Shown piece by piece: positions 59,585 to 62,559 of a DNA stretch of 64,000 bases (position 1 is its first letter; each line of letters opens with the position of its first letter). The notes below the pieces were generated by a model. It searched no databases, had not been told where the DNA came from, and saw only the letters and a program-made list of their open reading frames with translations. Origin of the DNA: Kalmusia sp. IMI 367209 (lineage: Eukaryota; Ascomycota; Dothideomycetes; Pleosporales; Didymosphaeriaceae); assembly GCA_027946365.1 (NCBI GenBank), contig JAPEUQ010000015.1, forward strand, positions 806,001 through 870,000, given 5' to 3'. The position numbers were made by a program, and so were the translations under genes.

Positions 59585-60535
59585 CTACATAGCAGGCATC
59601 GCGTTGTTCAATGCCCACTGTTTGATTTTATCGAAGTTCCTGCAGACATGCTTCGATTCGTAGTCGGGCAGAGGCTCCTGTTTACTGGGTGTGACATGAT
59701 AAGTGAAGACACTGACGTCGGAAGCACACATAAGCTTCGTGCGCAATATCTCGACACAGTGATCTGATCCAGCGTTAGAAGGGTTTGAAATGATCGAACT
59801 TCTTTCCGGGGGGGCACTCACCAAGATATGCCCGCACCTCTTCAGGCTTGTTGTTCTCATCCGACTGCAGCTTCGTATAGTGCTCCGGGTAGGTGGCCAT
59901 CCGCAAAAGGTTCAGACACTGCAGCTGGTGAAAGACTTCAAGACCAACCCGGTAGCCGGTCTCACCCGTCTTCGAGTCAGTGACTTTGAGAGAATCTGCG
60001 GGCTTCTTGAGCTTAGGGAAGTCGTCCATTGAGACCATCTGATCCGGAACTGGAACAATTAGCGAAGTGATATATAGAGCTCTTCTTTTGTCTATTACCG
60101 TATGCAATGTTTAACCACTCTTTATTCACCTTGTCAGATACACCGACATATTTCGAATCGTTGAGATTACTGGGTAGCTTGAACTGGACCTCCTCGTACT
60201 CAACAACATGCATGGCCGGCGCTTTTAACAATCAGTCAAAGAAGATAATGCACTTCCTTGTACGCACAGAAGACACCGAATTCATCCATCAGCCTTGCCG
60301 CAGCATAGGTGGATCGCGAGTTTTGTGAGTATACCGCGCAGACTAGGGTAAGAGCGGACATCATAAAGACGAACAGATTCGCCAACAGGAGATAGGTCAT
60401 GCCTTTCCTCCGGGCAGTCTCCTTGATGTGGTCTCTGTTCAGGAAAGACGTCGCCTCCCCATCTTGCGAGCTGAAGTCGTCGTAATCGACCTCGTTCTGT
60501 GTCTGCTTCTCCATTTTGGCGGTGTTTGGCTGCAT
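59585..60535 (-). CDS. UstYa-family (DUF3328) oxidase-like membrane protein
   Basis: Predicted member of the UstYa family, whose characterised members catalyse oxidative steps, including macrocyclisation, on fungal RiPP peptides. Model: complement(join(59585..59763, 59822..60049, 60099..60221, 60268..60535)), 265 aa, typical length. One transmembrane helix lies at about 47-69 (TYLLLANLFVFMMSALTLV). SPAMHVVEYEEVQF, made by the first splice, is the family's N-terminal motif. The two signature HxxHC motifs appear as HQLQC (171-175) and YLDHC (205-209), so each has lost one histidine. The C-terminus is HVCRNFDKIKQW and a short tail. About 1.2 kb away on the plus strand is a Kex2-type repeat precursor gene, the expected partner. 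The altered motifs may mean a different or lost activity. Confidence 0.88.
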
Positions 60536-61705
60536 CGTGATAGAGAGTGGAGAATTAAAGAATATAGAAACAAATCTTGCTGGATTCGGCCAGCGAAATC
60601 AAAAAGAAACGTGAAGGTCGCGGTCAACGCTGGAGAAGTGAAATGCAGGACGAGGAAGTCAGGCAGAAAGTATGAGGCATAGAAAAGTCGGAAGCTGTGG
60701 CAAAATCTCAGACGACAACGCGGCGCGCGTAACCCAAAGCTGAACGCGGCATCGCTCCGAGTGGGTGTTGAGCGCCACAGCGTTGCGAGCGAGCGAGCCT
60801 CATGAGGCAACAATACCCAGGCTAAGCTTTGCAGGGCAAGGCCAGCCGCAAACAAGCATTGTCAAAACAGGGGCTGTTGGAAGCGTAAACGGATCTGGTT
60901 GGACAGCGAAGCGAACATTGTTTGAAGATGCATGCTAGGCGATGTCTTAAGTCTCATGGATTCCGCACCACTGTTTGATCTTGGCGATCGTACACGCGGG
61001 GCTCTCACACAAGTTCTGATACTCAATGGGTGACAAGCTTTGCCCACGACGGAGTGCCTCCCGCCTATTTGCTTCAGCGGCATTTTGAACGCATCGCCTG
61101 CGACGAATGAACGATGAGGATAGCGGACAAGCTTTGTTTCAGGTTTTGGATATTGTCAATTAATGTACTGGGATTGGTGATCCACGATGTCTAGCATTTA
61201 CGACGTGAGGCTGGTATCCCAATTTGGTAGTAGTCACTTCGGCCTCTGTTCCTCTCTTTGGACACAGCCTGGCTGAGTCATGTGCCGACTATTCCGATTC
61301 ACGAAGAGGAGAAGACGTACTCAGCCAATGATCCACTTCGTTGTCGGACACTGAAAACAAGGTGCCCACCGCTCCTACCCCTCCGCGGCGTTTTGTGTCT
61401 CCCAAACCACACGAGACAACCTTGTCTTGCATGGAACCCGAAGTCGTAATGGATGCTGCCGTCAGTGCCCGTTCGAATGATGGTGTCAATGCATTCACGT
61501 CTCAGGAGCCAAGGCTATGACCTACGACTGAATCTGAGCGGAGGGATAGCCAGAATATAAACCCTCCTCAGGGCCGGTCAGGCCATCTCTGTAGGCGTTG
61601 ATCGTTCTCAAATCTGCTCATTTCTCCTCACCCTTCATTTGCTTCATTCGGCTGGACCATTTCTTTCGTTTGAACGATCCTTTTACACGCTTTACTTCTT
61701 TCATC
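60536..61705. promoter_or_regulatory. Divergent region between UstYa-like and repeat-precursor genes
   Basis: 1.17 kb between opposed start codons. A TATAAA box lies at 61556-61561, 145-150 bases before the precursor start. The minus strand at 60947-61100 has a Cys-containing open stretch that I could not build into a gene. Confidence 0.5.
61556..61561 (+). promoter_or_regulatory. TATA box of repeat-precursor gene
   Basis: Exact TATAAA, about 145 bases upstream of the ATG at 61706 and followed by a CT-rich stretch, as in many highly expressed fungal genes. Confidence 0.5.
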
Positions 61706-62559
61706 ATGAGGTTCGCTACCATTGCCCTCCTTCTTGGAGCCACTAGTGCCTATGTCATCACCAATGATAATGCTATGAGCGACTCTGCCGTGGCGGCCCG
61801 CAACATGGTGAGCGGAGGCGTTTCTGACATTGCTATCGACGCGAGGGATCCCCACCACAAGGTATGTCCAAAAGACCCATACCCTTACAGCACATGCTTA
61901 TGCATAGTAGGGCCGCAAGAACAACCGCCGGGAAGTAGAGGAGGTCGAGGTTGAGGCGAGGGACCCGCACCGTAAGTCACGCATCCATTGTTGAAGTAGT
62001 ACATGTATTAATAATAGTCAGACAAGGGCCGCAAGAACAATCGTCGTGAGATTGCCATTGAAGAGCGCGACCCTCACCACAAGGGACGCAAGAATAATAA
62101 GAGAGAGGTCGAGATTGAGGAGCGTGACCCCCATCATAAGGGCAGGAAGAACAACAAGCGCGAAATCGACATCGAGGAGCGTGATCCTCACCACAAGGGC
62201 CGTAAGAACAACCGCCGTGAAGTTGAAATAGAGGAACGTGATCCTCACCATAAGGGTCGCAAGAACAACAAGCGTGAGGTTGAAGTTGAAGCTCGTGAGC
62301 CCCATCACAAGGGCCGCAAGAACAACAAGCGCGAAGTGGAGATCGAGGAGCGTGACCCGCACCACAAGGGCCGTAAGAACAACCGCCGGGAGATCGACAT
62401 TGAAGAGCGTGACCCGCACCACAAGGGACGCAAGAACAACAAGAGGGAACCCGAGGTTGATGTTGAGGCTCGCGAAGCCCACCGTAAGTTACAACCATGG
62501 TTCCCCACAATGTGACTAGGCTAACGTATCGCACAGACAAGGGACGCAAGGGTAACTAA
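61706..62559 (+). CDS. Secreted Kex2-processed tandem-repeat precursor (candidate ustRiPP/KEP)
   Basis: Predicted secreted precursor of repeated short peptides. Model: join(61706..61861, 61911..61971, 62022..62483, 62537..62559), 233 aa. Residues 1-15 (MRFATIALLLGATSA) form a signal peptide. A ~35-residue leader follows, then nine units ending GRKNNKR or GRKNNRR and a degenerate last unit ending GRKGN. The usual unit is 19 residues; after cleavage behind the dibasic pair and trimming, the typical product would be EVEIEERDPHHKGRKNN. The unit is acidic in its first half and basic in its second, with an invariant PHHK centre except in the last (AHHK). Signal peptide plus repeats plus KR/RR sites is the layout of UstA-type RiPP precursors and KEPs. 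The neighbouring UstYa-like gene strengthens the RiPP reading. No Tyr occurs in the repeats, so known dikaritin chemistry is unlikely. Confidence 0.85.
62022..62483 (+). repeat. 57-bp tandem coding repeats
   Basis: Eight in-frame copies within exon 3 of the precursor gene, nearly all 57 bases (19 codons), the last 63. Copies differ mainly at synonymous positions and at conservative Val/Ile, Glu/Asp and Lys/Arg changes, which suggests selection on the peptide. Confidence 0.9.

What the first reader, a model, noticed from the sequence alone, without database searches (positions are those of the whole stretch)
59585..62559. Candidate new fungal RiPP locus: UstYa-family gene beside a Kex2-repeat precursor
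A DUF3328/UstYa gene and a signal-peptide protein with nine KR/RR-bounded repeats lie divergently, 1.17 kb apart. That pairing is the hallmark of ustRiPP (dikaritin) loci such as ustiloxin and asperipin. The repeat peptide is unlike the known cores I recall, so it would be a new member or a related peptide-hormone-like system.
Basis: partly seen in the sequence, partly recalled or inferred. Interest (0 to 1): 0.88.

Follow-up and report, generated by a model that had tools for sequence, protein, structure and literature searches.

The report
Fungal HHKG repeat-peptide gene beside UstYa
A fungal gene encodes a secreted precursor that carries ten near-identical copies of a short histidine-rich peptide, and it sits next to a gene of a copper-enzyme family that usually cyclises such peptides but here lacks half of its copper-binding histidines.

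Summary
A four-exon gene (61706-62559, +) encodes a 233-aa repeat precursor. A divergent four-exon gene (60535-59585, -) encodes a UstYa/DUF3328 protein (Pfam E 1e-52). There are ten, not nine, peptide copies: nine HHKGRKNN and one HHKGRKGN, each preceded by DP, EP or EA.

The reading as a new ustiloxin-like RiPP is only partly supported. (1) Kex2-repeat precursors with a di-histidine+Pro motif beside DUF3328 genes are already catalogued (Umemura 2020, types G-3 and G-8). (2) No Tyr, Phe, Trp or Cys is left after the signal region. (3) The UstYa reads HQLQC/YLDHC instead of HxxHC/HxxHC; in the relative CctR, replacing motif residues abolishes activity. Close orthologues share this loss, and 15 of 46 sequences on the tree have lost motif histidines. 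(4) The scanned neighbourhood is mostly housekeeping.

Positive result: 47 of 49 HHK motifs in the family follow Arg/Lys directly or after one or two X-Pro/X-Ala dipeptides. This is the Ste13 trimming rule, so the mature peptide probably begins His-His-Lys-Gly. A second HHKG precursor in the genome has no UstYa nearby.

Best reading: a Kex2/Ste13-processed, probably linear secreted peptide with a divergent UstYa partner. Whether it binds copper is untested.

The parts
61706..62559 (+). KEP precursor gene, 4 exons, 233 aa: signal region, then 10 units of [acidic spacer ending in R][DP/EP/EA][HHKGRKNN or HHKGRKGN][KR/RR, absent after the last]
   Evidence: splice enumeration and translation; relatives P0001-P0007
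61706..61753 (+). probable signal peptide MRFATIALLLGATSAY
   Evidence: read by eye from the sequence; no signal-peptide program was available
61862..61910 (+). intron 1, inside copy 1 after HHK
61972..62021 (+). intron 2, inside copy 2, splits the second His codon
   Evidence: the same read-through 'DPHR' in P0001, P0004, P0006
62484..62536 (+). intron 3, inside copy 10, same in-repeat position and phase as intron 2
59585..60535 (-). UstYa/DUF3328-family gene, 4 exons, 265 aa, long N-terminal helix (probably transmembrane), motifs HQLQC and YLDHC
   Evidence: model; Pfam; 85 homologues; motifs; helix 26-68 in the model of orthologue P0012
60536..61705 (.). shared 1.17-kb divergent intergenic region
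   Evidence: no UstYa relic above shuffled controls

Best explanation
The locus makes a short, basic, secreted peptide. Shown by sequence: a repeat precursor with dibasic sites and an X-Pro/X-Ala dipeptide in front of every HHK, and a divergent UstYa-family gene that has lost one His of each copper motif. Inferred: in the Golgi, Kex2 cuts after KR/RR and after the EER/EAR/DAR spacer ends; a Ste13-type dipeptidyl aminopeptidase then removes DP/EP/EA; a Kex1-type carboxypeptidase removes the trailing KR/RR; and nine copies of HHKGRKNN plus one HHKGRKGN are secreted. The UstYa protein in this lineage is probably not a working two-copper macrocyclase. It is either a non-catalytic partner (scaffold or Golgi receptor for the precursor) or a one-copper derivative. 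The released peptide is therefore most likely linear, and it acts as a conserved signal or interaction peptide rather than as a classic cyclic mycotoxin.
For: Precursor anatomy. 47 of 49 HHK motifs in the 13 sequences examined (the C23 paralogue counted as two pieces; P0006 has no contiguous HHK) follow R/K directly or after one or two X-[P/A] dipeptides: DP 19, none 12, EP 7, SP 3, AP 2, DPSP 2, EA 1, EPAP 1; the 2 misfits are in P0008 and P0009. The XP/XA rule of Ste13 is stated in PMC9769878 (passages). In the own-genome paralogue on C23, HHKG follows KR or RR directly in 5 of 6 copies and PR in the other: the same N-terminus reached without trimming. Processing enzymes are present: one P_proprotein match in the 865-aa frame that also holds the best S8 match, and two strong DPPIV_N matches plus a weak one. 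Core codons are constrained. The window and the 5 nearest orthologues (P0011-P0015) have Gln at the second His of motif 1; 15 of 46 rows are degenerate, 13 in both motifs, and both Cys are kept in 46 of 46. In CctR, alanine substitution of the motif His and Cys abolished activity (PMC12435403, parts 1-2 of 3). Repeats have no Y/F/W/C, whereas two other KEPs beside UstYa loci in this genome carry Tyr, one of them also Phe and Trp, and frames at those UstYa loci show HxxHC motifs.
Against: The UstYa gene is kept at 73-81% identity in the five nearest orthologues, so it does something, perhaps catalysis with a one-copper site. In Umemura's survey 57 of 64 G-3 and 45 of 49 G-8 precursors have DUF3328 within 15 genes, and orthologues from G-8 genera such as Pyrenophora, Bipolaris, Exserohilum, Ascochyta and Pyrenochaeta have intact HxxHC, so modification is plausible in the wider type. 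Cutting after a single Arg (EER, EAR) is not the preferred Kex2 site (recalled). No expression, peptide or synteny data were available. P/A before HHK is partly shared ancestry, not 47 independent events.
Confidence: 0.5

Rival explanations
1. A true ustRiPP/dikaritin: the neighbouring UstYa oxidises or cross-links the repeat peptide (for example His, Pro or Asn side chains), giving a cyclic or oxidised product.
For: Adjacency and divergent order; published enrichment of DUF3328 beside KEPs and beside types G-3/G-8; UstYa-family proteins also do hydroxylation, halogenation and desaturation, not only Tyr cross-links (PMC12435403; PMC10512285 passage).
Against: HQLQC/YLDHC instead of HxxHC twice; substitution of motif residues kills CctR; no aromatic residue or Cys in the repeats; no accessory biosynthetic domains in the frames scanned. 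Umemura found HH about as often in KEPs with DUF3328 (5.7%) as without (3.9%).
Confidence: 0.22
2. Plain alpha-pheromone-like or hormone-like KEP; the UstYa neighbour is a relic of an ancestral pathway with no present link to the peptide.
For: Ste13-type signature; second HHKG precursor in the genome without UstYa; mostly housekeeping neighbours; motif decay probably in several lineages (p-AU 0.046 against one clade). No precursor relative annotated in Bimuria, Paraconiothyrium or Didymosphaeria, which have the UstYa, appeared (small intron-rich genes are easily missed).
Against: The decayed-motif UstYa is not drifting freely: 73-81% identity in the five nearest orthologues, both Cys kept in 46 of 46 rows. 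The core is not the Trp-containing alpha-pheromone type.
Confidence: 0.2
3. Copper-handling pair: trimmed HHKGRKNN has an N-terminal X-His-Lys start, like the copper tripeptide GHK (recalled), and the half-site UstYa loads or senses copper rather than oxidising. This overlaps with the best explanation and sharpens it.
For: HHK is the family's fixed part, followed by G in 42 of 49 cases; X-Pro before HHK would mask the N-terminal site until trimming (inference); the UstYa family is copper-dependent; one His of each motif and both Cys are kept here.
Against: No metal-binding data. HHK could equally be a receptor contact. Other degenerate lineages keep different His or none (Periconia RQLQC/NLDQC).
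Confidence: 0.12

Closest known systems
KEP types G-3 and G-8 of Umemura 2020 (PMC7329392), di-histidine motif with Pro, beside DUF3328
   Same: Kex2 repeat precursor, HH with P in the repeat, DUF3328 gene next to it. G-8 lists ten genera that I take as Pleosporales (recalled); seven of them, Paraphaeosphaeria, Pyrenophora, Bipolaris, Exserohilum, Ascochyta, Pyrenochaeta and Periconia, appear among the UstYa homologues.
   Different: The type logos and tables are in a figure and supplements I could not see, so membership is not proven. The paper sections I read do not mention a Ste13 signature in these types or a broken copper motif in the partner.
Dikaritins / ustRiPPs (ustiloxin, phomopsin, asperipin-2a)
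   Same: Kex2 repeat precursor plus UstYa-family protein.
   Different: No Tyr, Trp or Phe in the repeats, UstYa motifs degenerate, no tyrosinase, P450 or transporter domain in the frames scanned.
Ascomycete alpha-pheromone precursors
   Same: XP/XA dipeptides after the Kex2-type cut (Ste13 signature), multiple copies; pheromone genes are almost never accompanied by DUF3328.
   Different: Core HHKGRKNN has no Trp; UstYa neighbour present; the residues before the dipeptide are ER/AR, not KR.
CctR, copper-dependent DUF3328 hydroxylase (PMC12435403)
   Same: Same Pfam family (DUF3328), one N-terminal helix, same place of the two motifs.
   Different: CctR needs its HxxHC His/Cys residues for activity; the window protein has Gln and Tyr at two of the His positions.

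Membership tests
Kex2-processed repeat protein (KEP) | N-terminal signal peptide | tested here: inconclusive
   Hydrophobic start read by eye; no signal-peptide program available
Kex2-processed repeat protein (KEP) | Several near-identical repeats separated by KR/RR | tested here: met
   10 copies, 9 ending in KR or RR
Dikaritin / ustRiPP | UstYa/DUF3328 gene beside the precursor | tested here: met
   PF11807 E 1e-52, 1.17 kb between the coding regions
Dikaritin / ustRiPP | Two HxxHC motifs in the UstYa protein | tested here: not met
   HQLQC and YLDHC
Dikaritin / ustRiPP | Aromatic residue (Tyr in the known cores) for the cross-link | tested here: not met
   No Y, F, W or C after residue 16
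Dikaritin / ustRiPP | Accessory genes such as tyrosinase, methyltransferase, oxygenase, transporter (usual, not obligatory) | tested here: not met
   Pfam scans of 27 of the window's 42 frames of 170 aa or more, one shorter frame, and 10 of 12 frames to the right; the rest, mostly antisense, and short exons were not scanned
Dikaritin / ustRiPP | Modified or cyclic mature peptide | not testable with these tools
   Needs LC-MS
KEP type G-8 or G-3 (Umemura 2020) | Di-histidine motif with Pro in the repeat | tested here: met
   DPHHK against the wording of the paper
KEP type G-8 or G-3 (Umemura 2020) | BlastP similarity to the listed type members | not testable with these tools
   Type tables are in supplements, which could not be read
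KEP type G-8 or G-3 (Umemura 2020) | DUF3328 gene within 15 genes (57 of 64 and 45 of 49 members) | tested here: met
   Adjacent gene
Ste13-trimmed (alpha-pheromone-like) precursor | XP/XA dipeptides directly after the Kex2 site | tested here: inconclusive
   XP/XA present in 10 of 10 window copies and 47 of 49 family motifs fit, but the residues before are ER/AR, not KR, in the window protein, so the Kex2 cut there is assumed
Ascomycete alpha-pheromone | Trp-containing pheromone core | tested here: not met
   No W

The most novel reading that the evidence does not exclude
A copper-peptide system. The precursor is trimmed by Kex2 and Ste13 to HHKGRKNN, whose N-terminal X-His-Lys start binds Cu(II) only once the masking X-Pro is removed. 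The neighbouring UstYa protein, descended from a two-copper oxidase, has kept one His of each motif and both Cys and now serves as a Golgi copper-loading or scaffold partner instead of a cyclase. This would be a 'pseudo-UstYa', probably evolved more than once, tied to a peptide family spread over Pezizomycotina.
Probability: 0.12. Interest if true: 0.8.

Novelty: new variant of a known kind. Interest (0 to 1): 0.5.

Why it matters
UstYa next to a Kex2-repeat gene is used in genome mining as a mark of a cyclic RiPP (for example the passages of PMC9632046). This locus shows such a pair in which the copper site of the UstYa is damaged and the core has nothing for the known Tyr cross-links to attach to; the damage is shared by the nearest orthologues. 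If the peptide is linear, some catalogued 'dikaritin' loci may be wrongly read. The N-terminal HHKG prediction gives exact masses and a synthetic peptide that can be tested directly. I found no reported product for such a peptide in searches (of 21, only 20 of 54 titles seen).

Tried and rejected
A decayed second UstYa in the intergenic region: a KIKQW string on the - strand (within 60968-61093) suggested it, but the best tblastn score in the region was 20 bits, while the ten highest maxima of 30 shuffled sequences were 22-25 bits, so rejected.

A solved fold for UstYa: PDB sequence search with P0012 (one match, E 0.66) and Foldseek with the AlphaFold model of P0012 (mean pLDDT 78.5, pTM 0.66; 0 matches at E <= 0.001) gave nothing. 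No coordinates were readable, so distances between the motif residues were not measured.

A family of RHHKG genes in the own genome: the short pattern matched 11 places, and its reversed control 10. Five of the 11 are the C23 precursor; the other six (C1, C2, C7:1013010, C10, C15, C25) did not read as repeat precursors. The longer pattern (R-x-P-H-H-K-G) matched 7 places, all in the window gene, control 0.

Correlated loss of His in both motifs: 13 of 15 rows, but only 2 independent pairs on supported branches (4 on all), too few for significance. One-clade origin of the loss is only marginally rejected (p-AU 0.046). P0014 and P0015 have odd gene models around motif 2, so P0015's motif-2 letters may be an annotation fault.

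Literature: 'PHHK' anywhere gave 54 papers, of which 20 titles were listed, none on such peptides. Searches on UstYa/DUF3328 gave no paper that I recognised as describing a His-less member; several were seen only as listings. Chiang et al. 2025 (JACS, copper-dependent DUF3328) is known to me only from a reference list and is not held. PMC7099791, PMC8146201, PMC6941272 and PMC9632046 were searched for passages only and gave nothing on HHK peptides.
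Full report
WHAT IS THERE. The window is C7:806001-870000 of a 42.8-Mb, 30-contig assembly that the tools hold without a name. On a UstYa tree it groups with Paraphaeosphaeria, Paraconiothyrium, Bimuria and Didymosphaeria (six rows, support 100/98), so it is probably a Didymosphaeriaceae fungus (family name recalled). On the + strand at 61706-62559 lies a four-exon gene for a 233-aa precursor. After a hydrophobic start and a short pro-region come ten units of the form [acidic spacer such as EVEIEER][DP][HHKGRKNN][KR or RR]. Eight copies have DP, one has EP, and the last is EAHHKGRKGN. On the - strand at 60535-59585 lies a four-exon gene for a 265-aa UstYa/DUF3328 protein (Pfam E 1e-52 for the 262-aa first model). 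1170 bp lie between the coding regions.

IS IT MORE THAN CHANCE. Synonymous sites in the ten cores have diverged widely (pS 0.63) while the peptide has not (pN 0.03; dN/dS about 0.02). The spacers vary more in sequence but keep an acidic pattern ending in AR or ER; their pS is saturated, so no ratio is given. Three introns lie inside repeat units, two of them at the same place and phase, and translations of relatives run on at that same place ('RDPHR', P0001, P0004, P0006). The genome has 102 UstYa exon matches that merge into 69 loci; 0.46% of the genome lies within 1.2 kb of one.

THE PEPTIDE FAMILY. A single-sequence protein search found 2 relatives at E <= 0.01, and a three-row profile found 10 at E <= 1, those two included (in each about 8000 candidates were scored). 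P0001, P0004 and P0005 are close; P0006 is a shorter relative. P0002 (Mytilinidion resinicola) and P0003 (Lophium mytilinum) are more distant. P0007 is from Pestalotiopsis fici. P0010 (Paraphaeosphaeria minitans) resembles, by eye, a second HHKG precursor that I found in the own genome at about C23:246.5-247.6 kb. P0009 and P0010 have weak E-values (0.09 and 0.2). No annotated precursor from Bimuria, Paraconiothyrium or Didymosphaeria appeared, although those genera have the UstYa orthologue. Across all entries the fixed part is HHK, followed by G in 42 of 49 cases.

PROCESSING. In 47 of 49 cases HHK is preceded, back to the nearest R or K, by nothing (12) or by one or two dipeptides ending in Pro or Ala: DP 19, EP 7, SP 3, AP 2, DPSP 2, EA 1, EPAP 1. 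The two misfits are P alone after a Lys in P0008 and VALEP in P0009. This, and the DP-to-EA change in the last window copy, is what a Ste13-type dipeptidyl aminopeptidase would need. The XP/XA rule is stated in PMC9769878 (abstract and passages); PMC6339444 section 9 describes Ste13 signatures in KEPs. In the C23 paralogue HHKG follows KR or RR directly in 5 of 6 copies and PR in one. Both routes would give a peptide that begins HHKG. This is an inference from sequence: shared ancestry accounts for much of the agreement, and in the window gene the cut before DP would fall after EER, EAR or DAR, not after a dibasic pair. The own genome encodes one Kex2-type protease (P_proprotein and the best S8 match in one 865-aa frame) and has two strong DPPIV_N matches and one weak one.

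THE UstYa PARTNER. The search gave 85 proteins at E <= 1e-10 among 294 candidates, mostly from genera I know as Pleosporales where a genus is named. In the 86-row alignment, fragments included, motif 1 is HQLHC in 68 of 85 ungapped rows and HQLQC in 11; motif 2 is HLDHC in 51 of 77 and YLDHC in 5. The window has HQLQC and YLDHC. On a 46-row tree built without the motif columns, 15 rows have lost at least one motif His, 13 of them in both motifs, and the two Cys are kept in 46 of 46. The label needs 4 to 5 changes on the best trees, supported branches force 2, and holding the 15 rows together is marginally rejected (p-AU 0.046). In the own genome the codon pattern for FHQLHC matches 15 places, 13 of them at or within 60 bases of UstYa matches; the broader pattern adds six, of which only the window's lies at a UstYa match, the other five being at the level of the reversed control (6). 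PMC12435403 (parts 1 and 2 of 3 read) reports for CctR that the motif forms a binuclear copper centre (AlphaFold model, two copper per monomer by ICP-MS) and that alanine substitution of the conserved His and Cys abolished activity. The window protein keeps the first His of motif 1 and the second His of motif 2. In an antiparallel helix pair (helices 160-174 and 191-210 of the orthologue model) these two could face each other, so a one-copper site is possible (inference; no coordinates were readable).

CONTRAST INSIDE THE GENOME. I scanned the window and 22 loci for repeat precursors with a simple script. At 13 UstYa loci (12 plus the window; flanks from 1.5 to about 10 kb, so unequal) three have a KEP: the window, C4 near 1096.5 kb (repeat TPIGQFISIWYGEDGDD) and C29 near 251 kb (repeat PAVLYVSSVLPKSEKR). 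The last two carry Tyr, the C4 one also Phe and Trp, and reading frames at their UstYa loci show HxxHC motifs. The window KEP has no Y, F, W or C after residue 16. Two KEPs in the genome have no UstYa near: the C23 HHKG gene (287 kb away) and a FSRGQTPKR gene on C25 (652 kb away). Both were met only because they resemble the window gene, so they are no random sample.

NEIGHBOURHOOD. Pfam was run on 28 window frames (27 of the 42 of 170 aa or more, and one shorter) and 10 of 12 frames to the right. Hits are sirohaem synthase, an RNA methyltransferase, a berberine-type domain and an old-yellow-enzyme-type oxidoreductase 50 kb or more away, END3, two myosin-chitin synthases, a translation initiation factor 2, two regulators, thiamin pyrophosphokinase, SKN1/KRE6, DUF7730, ADP-ribosylglycohydrolase, an RNase III-like protein, a PfkB kinase, CAP and a short-chain dehydrogenase. 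Nothing close by looks like a secondary-metabolite cluster. The 15 other long window frames, mostly overlapping those scanned, and short exons were not scanned.

WHAT IS KNOWN. Umemura 2020 (PMC7329392; abstract and sections 6, 7, 9 read) counted 7878 KEPs, 22% with DUF3328 nearby, and noted a di-histidine motif with Pro in types G-3 (57 of 64 with DUF3328) and G-8 (45 of 49; genera include Paraphaeosphaeria, Pyrenophora, Bipolaris, Exserohilum, Ascochyta, Pyrenochaeta, Periconia). It also states that HH is about as common in KEPs with DUF3328 (5.7%) as without (3.9%). The kind is therefore catalogued. I could not see the logos or tables, so I call membership in G-8 likely, not shown. In the sections read, nothing was said of a Ste13 signature in these types or of a broken copper motif in their partners. 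PMC12048977 (abstract, section 16, passages) takes the two HxxHC motifs as the mark of RiPP-related DUF3328 proteins; the window protein fails that mark.

VERDICT. Real locus; known kind; unusual partner. I think it most likely that the peptide is released linear as HHKGRKNN after Kex2, Ste13 and Kex1 steps, and that the UstYa protein is non-catalytic or has one copper (0.5). A modified product made by this UstYa remains possible (0.22), as does an unrelated relic neighbour (0.2). The boldest reading, which overlaps with the first, is a copper-binding peptide with a pseudo-UstYa partner (0.12).

Noticed in passing
window 58391-58800 (+): Two-exon gene for a small secreted Cys-containing protein (MRFALLVF..., with NHHNHHKEP), on the other side of the UstYa gene; the search found no second copy in the genome. 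Whether its HHK is related is unknown.
   Followed up: partly
own genome C23:246500-247600 (L027): Second HHKG repeat precursor with Cys- and Asn/Ala-rich spacers, six HHKG copies, a frame change between copies 3 and 4, nearest UstYa match 287 kb away.
   Followed up: partly
own genome C29:250727-251257 (L037): KEP with repeat PAVLYVSSVLPKSEKR 1.3 kb from a UstYa gene; a more typical ustRiPP candidate.
   Followed up: no
own genome C4:1096311-1096697 (L007): KEP with repeat TPIGQFISIWYGEDGDD about 1 kb from a UstYa gene.
   Followed up: no
own genome C25:2734379-2735335 (L033): KEP with FSRGQTPKR repeats and similar acidic EAR-ending spacers, no UstYa match within 652 kb.
   Followed up: no
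UstYa orthologues P0030, P0036, P0038, P0053, P0017, P0021, P0057: Other lineages have lost different His of the same motifs (Periconia all four) while keeping both Cys.
   Followed up: partly
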